A stretch of DNA of 42,852 nucleotides from contig JAUNFS010000006.1 of NCBI GenBank assembly GCA_030524925.1, positions 1 through 42,852 of the forward strand, in the 5' to 3' direction. This DNA comes from a bacterium. Its GTDB lineage: Bacteria > Bacillota_I > Bacilli_A > RF39 > UBA660. The first letter of the stretch is position 1. Each line of letters opens with the position of its first letter. Both the position numbers and the translations under genes were made by a program. This document shows, piece after piece, positions 3,315 to 42,852 of this stretch. A model generated the notes under the pieces. It did no database searches. It worked only from the letters and a program-made list of their open reading frames with translations, and was not told where the DNA came from.

Positions 3315-5777
3315 ATGAATAAAGAATTAGAAGGGGTTTTTGAAGAATATAATGGTTTAAGTGAAGAAGAGGTTTTAAATTTAAGAGAAAATTATGGTGA
3401 GAATGTTTTAAAGCCTAAGAAAAAGCTACCTTTCATTTTTAGACTGCTAGCAGTTTTTAAAGAGCCAATGTTTTTACTTTTAATTATTACAGCAAGTGTA
3501 TATTTTATTGTTGGTGAGTATGCAGATGGCTGTTTAATGTTAGTTTTTGTTGTGGTAATTTCTATGATATCTTTTTTTCAAGAAAATAAGACAGAAAAAG
3601 CGTTAGAAGAACTTAGTAAGTTATCAGCAATTAATGTTAAAGTAATTAGAAATAAAATGGTAAAAACAGTTTCTAGTGAAGAATTAGTAGTTGGAGATTT
3701 GGTTATATTAGAAGAGGGAGACAGTGTCCCAGCTGATGGGATATTACTTTATGCGGAAGGTTTAGGCGTTAATGAGGCAATGCTTACTGGAGAATCTGCA
3801 GTTGTTTATAAAAACATTTTAGAAGATGATAAGAATCATTTTAAATTAAATATGGTCTATTCTGGAACTAGCGTAGTTGGTGGAGTAGGACTATTTAAAG
3901 TTAGTAGTGTTGGTACTATGACAGAAATTGGTAAGATTGGTTCTGAACTTGAAGAAATAAAAAAAGGAAAGAGTCCTTTAACAAAACAAGTAAATAAACT
4001 AGTTTATGTATGTACAATTATAAGTGTTTTAATTTGTGTTTTTACGATGATTATTAACTTTATTAATTTAGGAGATTTGAGTCTTAAAGAAAGAATTATA
4101 GAATCTATTTTAGCTGGCATTACAATAGCAATGGCAACAATACCGGAAGAAATACCAGTAATACTTACGGTGTTTTTAGCATTAGGAGCGTCTGGTCTTG
4201 CGAAAGAAAAAACACTTGTTAAGAATTTAAATGCTACTGAAACACTTGGTGCTATAAATGTATTATGTACTGATAAAACCGGGACATTAACTCAAAATAA
4301 AATGGATGTGGCTTTTGCTTATGAGAATAGTAAGTCTTTTGGTGAAAGTGCTGTTAGAGCTTCTTTAAAAATTTCAATTGATCCGATGGAAAAGGCAATA
4401 AAAAAGTATTTTAGTAATGTAAAGATTAAGCCCTTGGAGGTTTTAAGAGAATATCCTTTTTCTAATGTATCTAAAATGATGGGGATACTTTGGGCTGATG
4501 GGGTACTTTGTATAAAAGGGGCTTATGAAAGCGTGCTACCACTTTGCAAGATGACTGATGAACTTTATAAAAAGATGGTTAAAGATATTACTCATTACAT
4601 GAATGATGGATATAGAGTATTGGCAGTTGCTAGAGCTAGTAATGTTAAAGATAGTATAAATAATCTTAGTGATGTATCTTATGATTTTGAAGGTTTTATT
4701 GTTTTAGAAGATCCACCAAGAAAGAATGTATATAAGTCAGTGATGGCATGTAATAATGCTGGAATTAGGGTAATTATGATTACTGGTGATAATGGAAGTA
4801 CAGCACTTGGAATAGCTAATAAAATTGGTTTAATTAACAATGGCCATGTAATAACAGGTGAAGAACTAGAAAAAATGAACGATGATGAGTTGTTTATTAG
4901 TGTGCAGAATACAAATATTTTTGCAAGAGTTTATCCAAGTCATAAGATGAGAATAGTTGAAGCACTGCAAAAGAATAATAATGTAGTTGCTATGACAGGT
5001 GATGGAGTAAATGACGCGTCTGCTTTAAAGAAGGCTGATGTAGGAATTGCGATGGGATTAAGAGGTACTAATGTATCAAAAGAAGCAGCTGATATTATAA
5101 TTTTAGATGATAATTTTAATACAATTGTTAAAGGCGTATTTGATGCAAGAGGAATTTATAAAAATATTAAAAAAGCAATATCTTATATTTTTGTTATTCA
5201 TATACCAATAGCGCTCTTATCACTATTTGTTCCGCTTTTTAACTTACCACTGTTGTTAAAACCAATTCATATTCTTTTATTAGAATTACTTATTGATCCA
5301 ACGTCGTCAATTATTTTTCAAAGAATTAAAAATAGTAAGGATATTATGTATGAAAAACCTAGAAAGAAAGATGAAAATATTATTCATAGAAAAACAGTTG
5401 TAAGAAGTGTAGCTCAGGGTTTATTAATTTTCTTGGTAACTTTTTTAAATTATTATTTATTAATTCATTTAAATGTTATCACTAACAAAGCAATTACGAT
5501 AACTTATAGTACTTTAGTTTTGTCAATAATATTAGTTTCTTTTCAGCTTCGTACTTTAGATTCAACGTTTAAAACATTAGCTAATGCTTTAAAAGATAAA
5601 ACAGTTTTGATTGTTAATTTGGTTATAATTATGGGATTAATTTTGCTTGTTTATTTACCATATTTTAATAAGGTAGCTAATACAATGCCACTTAATATTT
5701 TAGAGTGGGGATATGTAGTTTGCATGGCAATAATATGTGTTGTTCCTTTTGATTTATTTAAGAAAAAGATTAAATAG
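3315..5777 (+). CDS. P2-type cation-transporting ATPase
   Basis: A membrane ATP-driven cation pump of about 820 residues. From the preferred ATG at 3315 (AAAGGTGA lies about 6 nt upstream; a GTG at 3306 overlaps that site), the actuator motif TGES is at 158-161. The M4 motif IPEEIP is near 276-281. The phosphorylated Asp is D320 in DKTGT, and the hinge TGDGVND lies later. Four hydrophobic helices precede and about six follow the catalytic domains, the usual P2 layout. The PEEIP form in place of the PEGLP of Ca2+-ATPases leaves the ion undetermined. M6 retains an acidic residue in LLIDPTSS. Calcium export is the first guess from family membership, with other divalent cations possible. Confidence 0.92.
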   Translation: MNKELEGVFEEYNGLSEEEVLNLRENYGENVLKPKKKLPFIFRLLAVFKEPMFLLLIITASVYFIVGEYADGCLMLVFVVVISMISFFQENKTEKALEELSKLSAINVKVIRNKMVKTVSSEELVVGDLVILEEGDSVPADGILLYAEGLGVNEAMLTGESAVVYKNILEDDKNHFKLNMVYSGTSVVGGVGLFKVSSVGTMTEIGKIGSELEEIKKGKSPLTKQVNKLVYVCTIISVLICVFTMIINFINLGDLSLKERIIESILAGITIAMATIPEEIPVILTVFLALGASGLAKEKTLVKNLNATETLGAINVLCTDKTGTLTQNKMDVAFAYENSKSFGESAVRASLKISIDPMEKAIKKYFSNVKIKPLEVLREYPFSNVSKMMGILWADGVLCIKGAYESVLPLCKMTDELYKKMVKDITHYMNDGYRVLAVARASNVKDSINNLSDVSYDFEGFIVLEDPPRKNVYKSVMACNNAGIRVIMITGDNGSTALGIANKIGLINNGHVITGEELEKMNDDELFISVQNTNIFARVYPSHKMRIVEALQKNNNVVAMTGDGVNDASALKKADVGIAMGLRGTNVSKEAADIIILDDNFNTIVKGVFDARGIYKNIKKAISYIFVIHIPIALLSLFVPLFNLPLLLKPIHILLLELLIDPTSSIIFQRIKNSKDIMYEKPRKKDENIIHRKTVVRSVAQGLLIFLVTFLNYYLLIHLNVITNKAITITYSTLVLSIILVSFQLRTLDSTFKTLANALKDKTVLIVNLVIIMGLILLVYLPYFNKVANTMPLNILEWGYVVCMAIICVVPFDLFKKKIK

Positions 5778-5782
5778 TTATA

Positions 5783-5811
5783 TTGTTTTTTAGGGTTAAG
5801 TATGCTAAAAT
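5783..5811 (+). promoter_or_regulatory. Promoter of the cadherin-like surface protein gene
   Basis: The -35 box TTGTTT (5783-5788) and -10 box TAAAAT (5806-5811) are 17 nt apart. A TG before the -10 box gives an extended form. The start falls about 20 nt before the GTG start codon at 5838. Confidence 0.6.
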
Positions 5812-5837
5812 TATTTTAGAATAGGAAGGTGTAGTTT

Positions 5838-7304
5838 GTGAAAAAATATTTATTATTTGCATTTTTATTGTTACTTCCTTGCAAGGTTTTGGCTTTTGCA
5901 TTTGATTGTCCTAGTTCAGTAACTAGTGGAGAAGAGATAAGATGCACAATTATACCGGGAGATAACCTAAATAAAATAAATGGTAATGTTGGATTTGATG
6001 ATGCGTTAGTTTTTTATGGAATATCAGGTAGCGGATTTACAAATGTAAGTAGTGGAACAAGCGTTACTTTAAATAGTGTTAAAACAAATGCAGAGATTTA
6101 TTTGAAATTTAAAGCACCAAGTGTTACTACAAAAAAAGAGTATGCGATAACATTTACAAATTTTTCGTATGTTACTGGAGATAATCGGACAAATCTTTAT
6201 GAAGCAAAATTATTTAAAGTAAATGTTGTTCCTAAGACAACAACCACAACTACAACAAAAGCAAGCGTTTTTAAAATCACTTTTGATGCTAATGGTGGAA
6301 CTGGGACTTTTAATGAATTATCTTGTACTAGCAAAAATGGAGTTTGTAATGTTGATTTAAGTAGTGTAGGAGTTCCTGTTAAAGATGGTTTTACATTTAA
6401 TGGCTGGGGAACTGTTAGAAGTTGTACTACTTCTGGGAATAAGAATGTTTATAAGGCTAAAAAGAGTACGACTTTATATGCTTGTTATACAAAAAATGGT
6501 GATACAACTACAACGACCACGACTACAAAAGTAACAACTACTACTAAGACAACGTCTACGACTACAGCTAAGACTGATATAAAATTATATTTAAAAGATT
6601 TAAGTGTTGAAGGTCAAAATATTGATTTTAGTAAGTTTAAAACAAATTATGAAATTAAGGTTTTATATGAGGTTGAAAGTATTAAAATTAATGCTGAAGC
6701 AGCTAGCGAGGGTATAAATACTGATTATCAAAATGAAGTAAATTTAGAAGTTGGTGAAAATGAAATCCCAATTACGCTTAGTGATGGGACGACTTCATCA
6801 GTTTATACTTTAAAGGTAATAAGGCTTAAAGAAGGCGAAGAAATTAAAGATGCTTCTAATGATGCTACTTTAAAGTCTTTAGTACTTACTGGTTATAATA
6901 TTGGATTTAATTCTACAGTAACAAGTTATGAACTAACTGTTAAATATAACGTTAGCAATATTGAGGTAAAAGCTACACCTAATGATGAGAATGCTAAGTT
7001 TGTTATTACTGGTAATAGTGATATTGCAAATGGAAGTGTTATAAAAGTTGATGTGCAGGCTGAAGATGGAACACTTATGTCTTACAAAATAAATATTGTA
7101 AAGCAAAACTTTTTTCAGACTTATAAAAATTATTTTTTAATGGGTGCAGGAGCGGTATTACTTATTTTAATAATTTTAATTATTGTTGATAAGAAGAAAA
7201 AAGTAAAAAAAATACCGAAAACTACTGTTGTAAAGAAATCAAGTAATATTAAATCTAGTGGTTCTAGCAATAAATCAAATGGAGTTGAAGTTTTAAAGAT
7301 GTAA
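5838..7304 (+). CDS. Membrane-anchored surface protein with InlB-type repeat and two cadherin-like beta-sandwich domains
   Basis: A 488-residue exported protein. Residues 1-19 form a signal peptide (KKYLLFAFLLLLPCKVLA). A beta-rich domain resembling cohesin follows (about 20-130), then a Thr-rich linker. Next comes an InlB/Listeria-Bacteroides-type repeat (FDANGGTGTF...GFTFNGWGT, about 145-215), then a second Thr-rich linker. Two cadherin-like beta-sandwich domains follow (about 248-330 and 341-420). One membrane helix (NYFLMGAGAVLLILIILIIV) and a Lys-rich cytoplasmic tail end the protein. This is a type I membrane protein displayed outside the cell, probably adhesive or structural; the ligand is unknown. 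The GTG start has GGAAGG eight nt upstream. It has its own promoter and a strong terminator. Confidence 0.85.
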   Translation: MKKYLLFAFLLLLPCKVLAFAFDCPSSVTSGEEIRCTIIPGDNLNKINGNVGFDDALVFYGISGSGFTNVSSGTSVTLNSVKTNAEIYLKFKAPSVTTKKEYAITFTNFSYVTGDNRTNLYEAKLFKVNVVPKTTTTTTTKASVFKITFDANGGTGTFNELSCTSKNGVCNVDLSSVGVPVKDGFTFNGWGTVRSCTTSGNKNVYKAKKSTTLYACYTKNGDTTTTTTTTKVTTTTKTTSTTTAKTDIKLYLKDLSVEGQNIDFSKFKTNYEIKVLYEVESIKINAEAASEGINTDYQNEVNLEVGENEIPITLSDGTTSSVYTLKVIRLKEGEEIKDASNDATLKSLVLTGYNIGFNSTVTSYELTVKYNVSNIEVKATPNDENAKFVITGNSDIANGSVIKVDVQAEDGTLMSYKINIVKQNFFQTYKNYFLMGAGAVLLILIILIIVDKKKKVKKIPKTTVVKKSSNIKSSGSSNKSNGVEVLKM

Positions 7305-7477: not shown

Positions 7478-9712
7478 GTGATAAAAAAATATAGGAAACG
7501 CATACTAATTCTGGCGTGTTTGCTACTGATAACCGTGCTTCTAGCCGGGGTATCTTATGCTGTGTTTAATAGTTATGCATCTCAAAATAGTACTAATACA
7601 TTAGCGGCAACTTGTATAGAACTAGAATTTAGTGGAGAAGATTCAGTTAATTTAATAAATGTATATCCAATAAGTGATAGTGAGGGATTAAAAACTACGC
7701 CATATAAATTTAAAATAAAAAACAAGTGTAAGAACTATTTAGAATATATGGTGATAGCTTCAGCAATAAATATTACTAATCCCTTAGATTCAAAATATGT
7801 AAAAGTAAATTTAAGTGGAGATAATGAAATGGAACCAGTGTCACTATCATCATTAAAATCTATCCAAACACCATCTTCATTATCAGGTTATAGTATTAAG
7901 GAAAATTATGTATTGAAAGATAATGATGGAATACTAAAAGATGAAGAGAGAAACTTTGAATTTAGAATGTGGTTAGATGGAGAAAATGAAGAGACTTGGA
8001 CAAGTGAACAGGTAGAAAGTAAAAACTATCAAGTAAAAATATCTGTAATTGGTACAGTAAAAATTGAACCAAAGAGTGATATATATATAGCAGCTTTAAT
8101 AGATGGAGAGGAAAGTCTTACATTTCCAACAACAGCCGATTATATGGCAAAAGTAAACTGTACTAGAGGCGGTAAAAAGGTAGATACAAATGCGAGTATA
8201 AAGTGGACAGGTGCAAGATGGGCACTAACTACAACTATTACTGATGGTAATACTAGGTGTAATGTTTCTTTTGTTGCGGAACCGGCTCCAGATGGTTGGT
8301 ATGCTGCTGAAGATGGGACACTACTTGCGGCAATAAAAAGCGATAATGAATTAGAGCCAACTATAACAACGCCAGGGACAGCGACAAGTTATAGCTTAGC
8401 AGATAAAATACCAGATTGGATATTTAATGTGGATGCATATTATACATATGGAGATACATATAAAGTGAATAGTGATGGGACGTATACTATTGAAAATCCA
8501 AAGAAGATAAAATATAGTGATGAATTAAGTATTTTAAAGGGAAAGTATATGGTTAGTTCACAAGATAATTATTCAGATGCTTTTTCTTCTAATGATGAAT
8601 TACTTGATACCACAAATAAGAAACAATTACTGTTGATTAGAGATACGGCTAGTGATGGTTTTACGTATAGTAAAATATCTGGTGGAATGAAAACTTTTCC
8701 TAAAGAAACTGAAGCAGTAATGGCTACTACGGCAGATGATTATGGGACTTCATATTACTTTAGAGGTGCTGTTGAAAATAATTATATAGAGTTTGCTAAT
8801 AAGTGCTGGAGAATAGTAAGAGTAACCGGTAATGGTTCAATAAAACTGGCACTATTTAATAATAATGCGAATAGTAGTACTAATCCATGTGCGGAAGTTA
8901 ATGATAGTAAAGAGGCTGCTACTGTGGGGTCAAGTATGTTTAATTATGCTCATGGTGATAATGCTTTTGTTGGATTTATGTATGGAAATGCTGGTTGTTC
9001 TAATGGAACCTCAATTAATAAAAATGAATGTACCAGTGCTGGAGGCACGTGGAACGCTTCAACGTCATATGCAAATGCGCAGGCCAATGTTAATAAAAGT
9101 ACAATATTAAAGTATTTAGAAGAGTGGTATAATAATAATTTAGCTAGTTATGATAGTTATATAGCAGATACTATATGGTGTAATGATAAGAGTACAGTAA
9201 AAGATACGTCATTTAATCCATGGGGATGGACGCTAGGAACGAATTATGGATATGGGTTTAATTCAAATTATTATAGTGCTAATAAAAGATTGCTGCAGAA
9301 TGATGAGTATGGGTTAATGCTTGCTGGTAATCCATCGCTAATTTGTCCAAATGATAATAATGGAGGAAAGTTATCTAAGTTTACAGTAAGCGATACCACT
9401 AATGGCAATGGAAATTTAGATAAAAAGATTGGATTACTTACTGCTGATGAAGTAGTGTTTGCGGGAGGTGGTGAGGTAAATTACAGCTTTTATTTAATAA
9501 AAAATACTTATACGTGGTGGTGGACTATGTCTCCTGGTGATCTAGGAAATGTTGGAACTAGTATGTGGGGAGTAAGTGGCGACCACAGTATTGTTGGTAT
9601 TTATCTTACTATACGAAGCAGAGCTGTAAGGCCATCAATATCACTAGTTTCTACAGTGCGAGTCACATCGGGAAATGGAACTAGAAATAATCCTTATAAA
9701 ATAACTGTATAA
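7478..9712 (+). CDS. Large SipW-dependent-like surface protein, paralogue of the protein at the window end
   Basis: A 744-residue exported protein. Residues 9-31 form a hydrophobic signal segment ending GVSYAVFNSYAS, then STNTLAATC, the pattern of SipW-dependent (TasA/camelysin-like) proteins. Beta-rich regions follow. The C-terminal half contains YYFRGAVENN, CWRIVRVTGNG, TIWCNDKS, LICPNDNNGGKLSKF and LLTADEVVFAGG. It ends in a compact domain WWWTMSPG...VRPSISL resembling C-type-lectin/DUF6273-like folds. Several blocks are near-identical to the protein starting at 40990. The GTG start has AGGTGG four nt upstream. Expression is probably switched by the G9 promoter. Role: probably a surface adhesin or matrix protein; the exact function is unknown. 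Confidence 0.85.
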   Translation: MIKKYRKRILILACLLLITVLLAGVSYAVFNSYASQNSTNTLAATCIELEFSGEDSVNLINVYPISDSEGLKTTPYKFKIKNKCKNYLEYMVIASAINITNPLDSKYVKVNLSGDNEMEPVSLSSLKSIQTPSSLSGYSIKENYVLKDNDGILKDEERNFEFRMWLDGENEETWTSEQVESKNYQVKISVIGTVKIEPKSDIYIAALIDGEESLTFPTTADYMAKVNCTRGGKKVDTNASIKWTGARWALTTTITDGNTRCNVSFVAEPAPDGWYAAEDGTLLAAIKSDNELEPTITTPGTATSYSLADKIPDWIFNVDAYYTYGDTYKVNSDGTYTIENPKKIKYSDELSILKGKYMVSSQDNYSDAFSSNDELLDTTNKKQLLLIRDTASDGFTYSKISGGMKTFPKETEAVMATTADDYGTSYYFRGAVENNYIEFANKCWRIVRVTGNGSIKLALFNNNANSSTNPCAEVNDSKEAATVGSSMFNYAHGDNAFVGFMYGNAGCSNGTSINKNECTSAGGTWNASTSYANAQANVNKSTILKYLEEWYNNNLASYDSYIADTIWCNDKSTVKDTSFNPWGWTLGTNYGYGFNSNYYSANKRLLQNDEYGLMLAGNPSLICPNDNNGGKLSKFTVSDTTNGNGNLDKKIGLLTADEVVFAGGGEVNYSFYLIKNTYTWWWTMSPGDLGNVGTSMWGVSGDHSIVGIYLTIRSRAVRPSISLVSTVRVTSGNGTRNNPYKITV

Positions 9713-40940: not shown

Positions 40941-40989
40941 GGTATAAGGATAGATAGGTATAAATTAGATGTACTTTTGGAGGTCACAT

Positions 40990-42852
40990 ATGAGAGAAAA
41001 GTATAGGAAAAGATTGTTAATATATGTTGGAATTTTGTTTTGCTTGATTTCATTAGTTGGTGTGAGTTATGCTGTTTTTAACGGTTATGCTTCACAAAGT
41101 TCAACAAATTCACTTACTGCTACGTGTGTAGAGCTAGTTTTTAGTGGAGAGAACTCCGTTAATTTAACTAATGCTTATCCGATTAGTACTGCGGAAGGTC
41201 TTAAGACGACGCCTTATACTTTTAAGATAAAGAATAATTGTGATAATTATATGCAGTATACAATAATTGCTTCAGTTATTAATACTACAAATGTGCTTGA
41301 TTCTAAGTTTGTTAGAATTGCTTTGGATGGGGATGATGTGGTAAGCCCAACAAATATTAGTGTTTTAAAGAAAATAAATACACCAGCGTCTCTTTCTGGT
41401 TATAGTATTAAAGAAAATTTTGTTTTAAGTGAGACAATGGGAATTAGTAAGAATGAAGAGAAGAACTTTAAGTTTAGAATGTGGCTTGATGGAGATAGTA
41501 GTGAAACTTGGACAAGTGAGCAAGTTGAGGGAATGAATTATCAGTTAAAGATTTCGGTTGTAGCTACTGTTAAGACTAAACCAGCGGATGATTTATATAT
41601 TGCTACTTTAGTTGATGGAGCGGCAAGTAGTTCTTTTCCGACAACTGATGAGTATGATGCGAGCGTGGTTTGTGAAAATGAAAGTGGAACAATTAATACA
41701 GGAGCAACAATTACTTGGAGTGATAATAAGTGGAAGCTAGCAATTGACGATGTTTCTACTGGGGAAACTACATGTACTGTTAAGTTTGTTGAAAGTAAAG
41801 TTAAATTACTGGCCGATGCTATTAAGGGTAAGAATAATAAAAATGTTTCGGTTGTTCAAACAACGCCAGGTTCTGCAGCATCAACTTCTACTGAGGCAGT
41901 TTTAGCAAGTACACAAGATGATTATGGAACTAGCTATTATTTTAGAGGTGCAGTAGAAAATAATTATGTAGAGTACGCTAATATGTGCTGGAGGATAGTA
42001 AGAATAACTGGAAATGGTGCTATAAAATTAGTTCTATATAATTATAATGGATTAACTAGTACTAATAATACTCTAGCAAGTAGTACACCTTGTAATGTAA
42101 CTGGAAACGATTATGCCTTTGCAAGATATGAAGGAGATACTTATACATCAACATTTAATTCAAGTTATAAAGATAATGCTTATGTAGGATTTATGTATGG
42201 CACGGCAGGAGCAAGTTCTTATACAGCTGCTCATGCTAATACTAATCCAAGTACTATGCTTACTAATCTAAATAAATGGTATACAAATGTACTTTCTAAG
42301 CAAGCCGGTTTTAATGATAGTCAGTTAGCAGATACAATATGGTGCAATGATAAGAGTGTAGTAACTGACACAACATTTAAACCTGGTAATTGGACTTTAG
42401 GTACAAATTATGGTTATGCAACTAATAAGAATTATTATAGCGCCACTAAAAGATTGGTACAAGCATCATCATGGAGTGCAGGAGGAACAGGACCTAGTCT
42501 AATATGTCCAAATGATAATAATGGAGGAAAGTTATCAAAGTTTACTGTAAGTGACACAACATATGGTAATGGAGCATTAAGTGGTTATGCTAAAGTTGGA
42601 TTGCTTACTGCAGATGAAATAGTATTTGCTGGTGGTGCTGCATACATGCCAAATTCAACATATTATATAAAAGGTAATGCTAGTTCAAATTATTGGCGGG
42701 CTTTGTCTCCGGGCTACTTTTATGGCGACGACGCTCTCGTTTGGGTTGCTTATGGCGGCGACGGCAGCATTGGCGACGGCTACGTTTACAGCGACATCGG
42801 CGTGCGTCCATCTTTATCACTTAGCTCTGGAGTTAAAATATCTGCCGGTGAT
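40990..42852 (+). CDS. Second large surface protein (partial), candidate target of a diversity-generating retroelement
   Basis: The frame is open from ATG 40990 (GGAGG six nt upstream) to the window end, 621 codons without a stop. The N-terminus, MREKYRKRLLIYVGILF through GVSYAVFNGYASQSS, matches the protein at 7478 closely. So do TTPYTFKIKN, YYFRGAVENN, CWRIVRITGNG, TIWCNDKS and CPNDNNGGKLSKF. It is exported and SipW-dependent-like. The final visible domain, NYWRALSPG...GVRPSLSL, is C-type-lectin/DUF6273-like. Its codons turn GC-rich from about 42694, unlike the rest of the gene. The C-terminus lies beyond the window. Confidence 0.88.
   Translation, partial: MREKYRKRLLIYVGILFCLISLVGVSYAVFNGYASQSSTNSLTATCVELVFSGENSVNLTNAYPISTAEGLKTTPYTFKIKNNCDNYMQYTIIASVINTTNVLDSKFVRIALDGDDVVSPTNISVLKKINTPASLSGYSIKENFVLSETMGISKNEEKNFKFRMWLDGDSSETWTSEQVEGMNYQLKISVVATVKTKPADDLYIATLVDGAASSSFPTTDEYDASVVCENESGTINTGATITWSDNKWKLAIDDVSTGETTCTVKFVESKVKLLADAIKGKNNKNVSVVQTTPGSAASTSTEAVLASTQDDYGTSYYFRGAVENNYVEYANMCWRIVRITGNGAIKLVLYNYNGLTSTNNTLASSTPCNVTGNDYAFARYEGDTYTSTFNSSYKDNAYVGFMYGTAGASSYTAAHANTNPSTMLTNLNKWYTNVLSKQAGFNDSQLADTIWCNDKSVVTDTTFKPGNWTLGTNYGYATNKNYYSATKRLVQASSWSAGGTGPSLICPNDNNGGKLSKFTVSDTTYGNGALSGYAKVGLLTADEIVFAGGAAYMPNSTYYIKGNASSNYWRALSPGYFYGDDALVWVAYGGDGSIGDGYVYSDIGVRPSLSLSSGVKISAGD
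42694..42810 (+). other. GC-rich, adenine-poor C-terminal segment, candidate DGR variable region
   Basis: By hand count about 61% G+C over 117 nt. Codons here are mostly NNC (GGC, GAC, CTC, AGC, TAC, ATC), while elsewhere in the gene T or A endings dominate. Replacement of AAC codons at their As would give exactly this set. The position, at the end of a lectin-like domain just before VRPS, is where DGR variable regions lie. No reverse transcriptase or template repeat is in the window; they would be expected downstream. Confidence 0.6.

What the first reader, a model, noticed from the sequence alone, without database searches (positions are those of the whole stretch)
42694..42810. Candidate diversity-generating retroelement variable region at the end of a surface protein
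A sharp switch to GC-rich, A-poor, NNC-ending codons occurs in the final lectin-like domain of a gene that is otherwise AT-rich. Adenine-specific mutagenesis of AAC codons in a template repeat yields exactly these codons. The paralogue at 7478 has no such composition shift at the same place. The window ends shortly after it, so the template and reverse transcriptase would lie outside.
Basis: inference. Interest (0 to 1): 0.85.

Follow-up and report, generated by a model that had tools for sequence, protein, structure and literature searches.

The report
Hypermutation target of a bacterial retroelement
The end of this surface-protein gene is a hypervariable cassette, one of at least eleven in a very small bacterial genome that look as if they were rewritten from one shared template by a mutation-making reverse transcriptase, so a whole family of surface proteins can be varied from one source.

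Summary
Window 42694-42810 is the variable region (VR) of a diversity-generating retroelement (DGR). The rest lies in the same draft genome on contig C25: template repeat (TR) C25:391-507, a MutS-like accessory gene (MSL), an Avd-like gene, and a reverse transcriptase (RT) with DGR motifs. Window VR and TR agree at 76 of 83 non-adenine template positions but at only 13 of 34 adenines (p=5e-9). The same TR matches the VRs of 11 of 25 aligned paralogues, on nine contigs. In their adenine-containing codons, positions 1 and 2 differ far more than position 3, the reverse of ordinary divergence. A further target, cut off at the start of C25, lies just upstream of the TR. In two other genomes of the family the TR matches only one other place, beside it. 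The window ends here because two targets share an exact 55-base end, which probably broke the assembly. The VR forms the last strands of a confidently modelled C-type-lectin-like domain. One RT and TR serving dispersed targets is known (seven in Treponema denticola), so this is a large new member of a known kind. Present activity could not be tested.

The parts
40990..42852 (+). DGR target gene (surface-protein family member); probable start ATG 40990, open at the contig end
   Evidence: ORF 40969..42852 open at 3' end; GGAGG upstream of the in-frame ATG at 40990; N-terminal hydrophobic stretch; 49 further matches of the protein in the genome
41866..42852 (+). C-terminal domain with C-type-lectin-like fold (residues 300-628 of the ORF from 40969)
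   Evidence: AlphaFold2 model mean pLDDT 90.3, pTM 0.92; VIA-align matches to Legionella Lcl C-terminal domain Z 6.5 and many C-type lectins Z 4-5.5
42694..42810 (+). Variable region (VR), 39 codons, WRALSPGYFYGDDALVWVAYGGDGSIGDGYVYSDIGVRP
   Evidence: Aligns without gaps to TR C25:392-508: 76/83 non-A template positions identical, 13/34 A positions identical, Fisher p=5.2e-9
42799..42809 (+). GC-rich 3' end of VR shared with the TR (GGCGTGCGTCC), candidate initiation-of-mutagenic-homing site
   Evidence: Identical in TR, window VR, C7 and C18:24420 VRs; similar in the others; role inferred by analogy with BPP-1
42798..42852 (+). 55 bases identical to the end of the target gene on contig C7; probable reason why the contig, hence the window, ends here
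   Evidence: Exact shared suffix of 55 bases; a 35-mer of it found only at these two contig ends
9518..9634 (+). Homologous segment of the paralogue at 7478, not derived from this TR
   Evidence: 45/83 non-A and 12/34 A positions match, p=0.048; no GC shift of the same size

Best explanation
Window 42694-42810 is the VR of a chromosomal DGR that acts in trans. Shown by sequence: one TR, one RT with DGR motifs, MSL- and Avd-like genes between them, and 11 target genes on nine contigs (plus one cut-off target next to the TR) whose 3' ends are copies of the TR changed mainly where the TR has A. Inferred: the TR and its conserved downstream spacer are transcribed, the RT (with Avd) copies the RNA with errors opposite A, and the cDNA replaces the VR from its GC-rich 3' end, making new binding surfaces on a C-type-lectin-like domain of exported proteins. 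All 20 adenine-containing template codons (12 AAC, 4 GAC, 2 AAT, 1 GAT, 1 AGC) can change without making a stop, allowing about 10^20 variants per target.
For: One RVT_1 match in the genome, C25:1666-2394, E 1.6e-15. TR C25:391-507 aligns to window 42693-42809. Order on C25: TR, MutS_I protein (28.0 bits, cut-off 20.6), Avd-like protein (below cut-off, NCBIfam DivGenRetAVD E 3.2e-6), RT; RT matches phrog_1423 at 4e-71 and its best solved match is 8ub7 at 1.2e-22. RT motifs IGNMTSQ and YMDD fit the DGR motif given in passages of PMC3521204. BLASTP with BPP-1 Brt E 7e-25, 24% identity. In 11 VRs the mismatch rate is 240/369 at template A against 55/337 at C, 32/294 at G, 26/275 at T. Codon positions 0.61/0.59/0.13 in A-codons, against 0.20/0.19/0.33 in the flank just upstream. 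Same gene order in a congener, with three TR-like copies. VR falls on the last strands of a confident CLec-like model.
Against: No population or strain data, so present activity is not shown. The window VR carries 7 non-A differences of 83 (the 11 VRs carry 113 of 906 in all), more than a freshly written VR should. The Avd-like protein is below curated cut-offs and has no meaningful BLASTP similarity to BPP-1 Avd. I found no perfect stem of 7 bp or more within 50 bases after the VRs. TR and window VR are on different contigs, so physical linkage is unknown.
Confidence: 0.94

Rival explanations
1. The target VRs are fossils: the DGR once rewrote them but no longer does, and the paralogues now diverge by ordinary mutation and selection.
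For: Non-A differences are common (7/83 in the window VR, 18/83 in C26). Eight of 11 VRs share C15T and seven share T18G against the present TR, as if written from an older template. A second DGR in the congener is decayed: its RT frame has a stop and its TR is short.
Against: The RT frame is intact with both motifs. C18:24420 differs from the TR at one of 83 non-A positions but 19 of 34 A positions, which implies recent writing. TR, spacer and terminator-like stem are present.
Confidence: 0.2
2. No DGR: the GC-rich end is a repeat shared by paralogues through gene conversion or ordinary divergence, with strong selection on binding residues.
For: The targets are paralogues, and their flanks are similar too.
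Against: Ordinary divergence hits third positions most (flanks 0.20/0.19/0.33; 14 other paralogues 0.58/0.61/0.74), while the 11 VRs show 0.61/0.59/0.13 in A-codons. The donor copy lies outside any plausible gene, beside an RT.
Confidence: 0.01
3. The GC-rich segment came by horizontal transfer from a GC-rich organism.
For: GC 0.607 inside a gene of GC 0.337.
Against: The shift is confined to the 117 bases that match the TR, and the composition follows from A-to-N change of AAC codons.
Confidence: 0.01
4. The RT is an antiviral (DRT/retron) enzyme and the repeats are unrelated to it.
For: PADLOC RT models match (best DRT-named model RT_UG4 1.9e-22); all these RTs are related.
Against: SQ motif, adjacent TR, MSL and Avd-like genes, and the same gene order in the congener; phrog_1423 4e-71.
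Confidence: 0.02

Closest known systems
Treponema denticola DGR (TvpA family), PMC4891356, passages read
   Same: One TR and one RT with target genes dispersed round the chromosome; targets have C-type-lectin-fold (FGE-like) domains; mismatches mostly at template A.
   Different: Seven targets in the best isolates against 11 plus one cut off here; the accessory protein named in the passages is HRDC, here MSL and Avd-like; different phylum and much larger genome (recalled).
Bordetella phage BPP-1 DGR (record NC_005357; PMC3240598, passages read)
   Same: TR, Avd, RT; A-specific change; VR at the 3' end of a lectin-fold protein (fold recalled); GC-rich 3' end shared by TR and VR.
   Different: Phage-borne with the target beside the cassette; RT only 24% identical; no MSL annotated; has a hairpin after the VR that I did not find here.
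Cyanobacterial DGRs with remote variable proteins (PMC7517822, passages read)
   Same: Remote CLec paralogues with TR homology beside paralogues without it.
   Different: 58 DGRs with 90 targets in 52 genomes, mostly predicted cytosolic and often kinase or peptidase fusions; here the proteins look exported.
   Same: RT 41-44% identical to this one; TR and VR pair with A-specific differences.
   Different: The TR matches only one other place in the genome, beside it.

Membership tests
Diversity-generating retroelement | Reverse transcriptase with (I/V/L)GxxxSQ and YxDD motifs | tested here: met
   IGNMTSQ and YMDD in the C25 RT; motif definition from passages of PMC3521204
Diversity-generating retroelement | Template repeat near the RT, outside the target gene | tested here: met
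   C25:391-507, about 940 bases before the RT start
Diversity-generating retroelement | VR near the 3' end of a coding gene, differing from the TR mainly at template adenines | tested here: met
   Window: 21/34 A against 7/83 non-A mismatches, p=5.2e-9; 11 of 25 aligned paralogues pass
Diversity-generating retroelement | Accessory protein Avd (common, not universal) | tested here: inconclusive
   118-aa ORF overlapping the RT start matches bAvd 6.7e-5 and DivGenRetAVD 3.2e-6, both below curated cut-offs; no useful BLASTP match to BPP-1 Avd
Diversity-generating retroelement | MSL accessory protein (PF01624), found in some DGRs | tested here: met
   MutS_I 28.0 bits, cut-off 20.6; MSL named as a DGR accessory in PMC10053308 passages
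Diversity-generating retroelement | Target domain with C-type-lectin fold (usual, not universal) | tested here: met
   Model pLDDT 90.3; Lcl C-terminal domain Z 6.5, rmsd 4.4, 120 aligned, and many C-type lectins Z 4-5.5, rmsd about 3, about 100 aligned. Z below 8 is moderate
Diversity-generating retroelement | Hairpin/cruciform just 3' of the VR, as in BPP-1 | tested here: inconclusive
   Only perfect stems of 7 bp or more sought, in 13 flanks; two found, 73 and 97 bases after the VR; window and C7 flanks are only 42 bases long
Diversity-generating retroelement | Active adenine-specific diversification in a population | not testable with these tools
   One genome of the species; no reads

The most novel reading that the evidence does not exclude
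A very small (0.9 Mb draft) Bacilli genome runs a genome-wide surface repertoire from a single mutagenic template: at least a dozen dispersed lectin-like surface genes are kept rewritable by one RT and TR, while about as many stable paralogues serve as a reserve, a bacterial counterpart of an antigen or receptor repertoire, with the many-target state having arisen within this genus from single-target ancestors.
Probability: 0.5. Interest if true: 0.72.

Novelty: new member of a known kind. Interest (0 to 1): 0.52.

Why it matters
It shows how far one DGR can spread its targets in a reduced genome, where coding space is scarce. It gives 11 natural VRs written from one template, useful for measuring the error spectrum and template drift. 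It also bears on surveys: contig-based DGR searches miss remote targets, a limit that PMC8144416 states (passages), and the shared target ends can themselves break assemblies at the VR, as seems to have happened here.

Tried and rejected
Rejected: horizontal transfer and ordinary paralogue divergence (codon-position inversion). My first codon alignment used the wrong reading frame of the TR and was discarded; one search repeats it in the right frame. An ungapped comparison understated VRs that carry codon gaps.

Led nowhere: Rfam on C25:1-1500 (one sub-threshold match); thermodynamic fold of the TR transcript (z -0.09); viral contigs for the target protein (no match) and for the spacer pattern (none); viral contigs for the RT gave six relatives at 25-34% only; solved structures for the Avd-like and target proteins (nothing useful); Pfam and NCBIfam gave no domain for the target above cut-off; a de novo TR/VR scan of L002 found nothing, because its local VR has too many non-A differences. 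In the structure lists no known DGR variable protein appeared by name; that is not evidence against the fold. The best fold match was the N-terminal part of Thomasclavelia ramosa IgA peptidase (Z 10.9, rmsd 3.5, 187 aligned); I draw no function from it.

Borderline targets not counted: C20:34301 (51/79 non-A, p 1e-5) and C28 (54/83, p 0.03) may be old VRs. More distant matches on C1, C28:24390, C38:52487 and C24 were looked at by eye and not aligned codon by codon, so 11 is a lower bound.

Limits: the line between 11 'written' and 14 'other' paralogues was set by alignment score after seeing the data, and the score itself rewards non-A identity; the A/non-A contrast is therefore best judged on the top few (C18:24420 1/83, C7 4/82, window 7/83 non-A mismatches). 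Template A's fall mostly on likely binding-surface codons, but selection there would not spare third positions. The 13-of-59 RT count includes G000 itself.

Full report
What was claimed and what is there. That is real: GC 0.607 against 0.337 earlier in the gene, 20 of 39 codons ending in C against 4% before, and no other 117-base stretch of the window as GC-rich. The paralogue at 7478 lacks it (GC 0.444, 4 of 39 NNC).

The missing parts exist. The window is contig C16 of a 905,118-base, 38-contig draft genome, 85% complete. A search with the reverse-transcriptase family gave one match, on C25. A search of the genome with window 42660-42840 gave 16 further places, ten of them with E below 0.004. 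One is C25:391-507, about 940 bases before the RT, which aligns to window 42693-42809. Read in frame it gives WWALSPNDFNGNNANVWDVNGDNSNLDNDNVNNNNGVRP, the asparagine-rich look of a template repeat. Its 34 adenines fall in 20 codons (12 AAC, 4 GAC, 2 AAT, 1 GAT, 1 AGC), none of which can become a stop by changing A, and which allow about 10^20 proteins.

Anatomy of C25. In order: the last codons of a target gene (1-57), TR (391-507), a spacer ending in a terminator-like stem (706-731), an MSL gene with a MutS domain I (ORF 685-1116; probable start ATG 760), an Avd-like gene (1103-1459), the RT (1447-2547), a paralogue without a TR-like VR, and a paralogue with one (4570-5991). The RT has IGNMTSQ and YMDD. 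Genes further on read as ribosomal proteins S10 and L3 (recognised from memory, not searched), so the locus looks chromosomal rather than phage.

Template specificity. I aligned the 3' ends of 25 paralogues to the TR codon by codon. Eleven match well; non-A identity runs from 0.78 to 0.99, A identity from 0.15 to 0.44. The window VR: 76/83 non-A, 13/34 A, p=5.2e-9. The cleanest, C18:24420, has one non-A difference of 83 and 19 A differences of 34. Summed over the 11: A 240/369 mismatched, C 55/337, G 32/294, T 26/275; the changed A's became G 125, T 81, C 34. The other 14 show no such contrast (A 291/464, C 281/424, G 147/365, T 101/340). A control that does not rest on which base is A: in template codons with A, codon positions 1, 2, 3 differ at 0.61, 0.59, 0.13 in the 11, but 0.58, 0.61, 0.74 in the 14; the 60 codons upstream of the 11 VRs differ pairwise at 0.20, 0.19, 0.33. 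Ordinary coding evolution spares positions 1 and 2; these VRs spare position 3.

Results against the simple picture. The VRs also carry non-A differences, 113 of 906 in all (sums). Some are shared: eight of 11 have T at template position 15 and seven have G at 18. The congener's TR also has CCG at that proline codon, so an older template, or unreplaced 5' ends, would explain them. The Avd-like protein is below curated cut-offs. No perfect hairpin was found close after the VRs, although two flanks were only 42 bases long.

Why the window stops here. C16 and C7 share exactly their last 55 bases, beginning inside the 3' end of the VR, and the 35-mer tested occurs only at these two contig ends. 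A de Bruijn assembly with k=55 would break there (inference). C25 likewise starts about 16 bases past where a VR would end: C25:1-164 is 91% identical to the sequence after the VR of the C20 target. That cut-off gene, directly upstream of the TR, is probably the twelfth target; its VR is missing from the assembly.

Relatives. Of 59 genomes searched (G000 included), 13 hold a related RT at E up to 1e-20. In the congener G003 (64% complete) contig C11 holds a target gene, three TR-like copies, MSL, Avd-like gene and RT in the same order, and the TR next to the MSL gene also matches C43 and C2. G003 has a second, decayed DGR on C84 (RT with one TAA; short TR). The spacer after the TR is conserved in own C25, G003 C11 and G003 C84 (75% over 114 bases and 70% over 142), which suggests a functional RNA part. 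In two other genera of the family, G022 and G005, the TR matches only one other place in the genome, next to it. G002 of the same genus has 24 matches to the target protein at E up to 1e-40 but no RT or TR match; it is 84% complete, so absence is not proved. Among 40 related RT loci tested, an MSL relative was found in 3 and an Avd relative in 16 by tblastn at 1e-4, many loci being short. Named relatives of the RT are mostly uncultured Bacilli, including Candidatus Caccenecus.

The target protein. Residues 300-628 of the window protein, with 39 paralogues and relatives as alignment, gave a model of mean pLDDT 90.3. The VR is model residues 277-315, which hold three of its last four strands and the start of the fourth; block pLDDT there is 92-97. 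Solved matches are C-type-lectin-like: Legionella Lcl C-terminal domain Z 6.5 and many lectins at Z 4-5.5; viral models named DUF6273 and DUF1566 also match, mostly weakly. Surface exposure of the VR residues was not computed. Export is inferred from the hydrophobic N-terminus only.

Comparison with print. Remote targets and multi-target DGRs are known. T. denticola has one TR, one RT and up to seven dispersed targets (PMC4891356, passages). DiGReF found up to four VRs within the regions scanned and noted written genes living beside stable paralogues (PMC3521204, passages). MetaCSST reports 271 of 948 DGRs with several VRs and some with very many, one of them called atypical (PMC6642488, passages). 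Thiohalocapsa has 15 targets over nine DGR loci (PMC10907252, passages). The global survey says it would not detect remote targets (PMC8144416, passages). Searches for DGR with Tenericutes gave one paper (a liver-disease review) and with Mycoplasm* eleven, of which ten were listed and none has a title about DGRs of this lineage (listings only); that is a weak statement, since most subscription papers are not held.

Verdict. A DGR variable region, shown by anatomy and by template-specific change; writing in trans of at least 11 targets is the best reading; present activity is unproved. New member of a known kind, at the high end for number of dispersed targets of one template among the cases I read.

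Noticed in passing
L109 (G003:C11), reverse strand, about 900-1714 in reversed coordinates: The congener carries three tandem TR-like copies of differing sequence before its MSL, Avd-like and RT genes; the middle one reads partly like a written copy.
   Followed up: partly
L110 (G003:C84):4152-5789: A second, decayed DGR in the congener: RT frame broken by a stop, short TR, conserved spacer still present.
   Followed up: partly
L002:516-705: Spacer after the TR is conserved at 70-75% in three DGR loci of the genus and is followed by a terminator-like stem; possibly a functional part of the template RNA.
   Followed up: partly
L002:about 187-242: An inverted repeat (GTGGCAACTGCT ... AGCAGTTGCCAC) between the cut-off target gene and the TR; seen by eye, role unknown.
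   Followed up: no
L170 (G002:C8), 558-674 reverse: One target paralogue of G002 has a GC 0.53, 33% NNC segment like a written VR, although no RT or TR was found in that 84% complete genome.
   Followed up: no
L119 (G000:C1), reverse strand: A 585-residue relative ends in a VR-like segment that shares GGCGTGCGTCC with the TR but is otherwise diverged.
   Followed up: no
window 41866-42852 (model): The best solved-structure match of the target domain is the N-terminal part of Thomasclavelia ramosa IgA peptidase (9qa6, Z 10.9, 17% identity).
   Followed up: no
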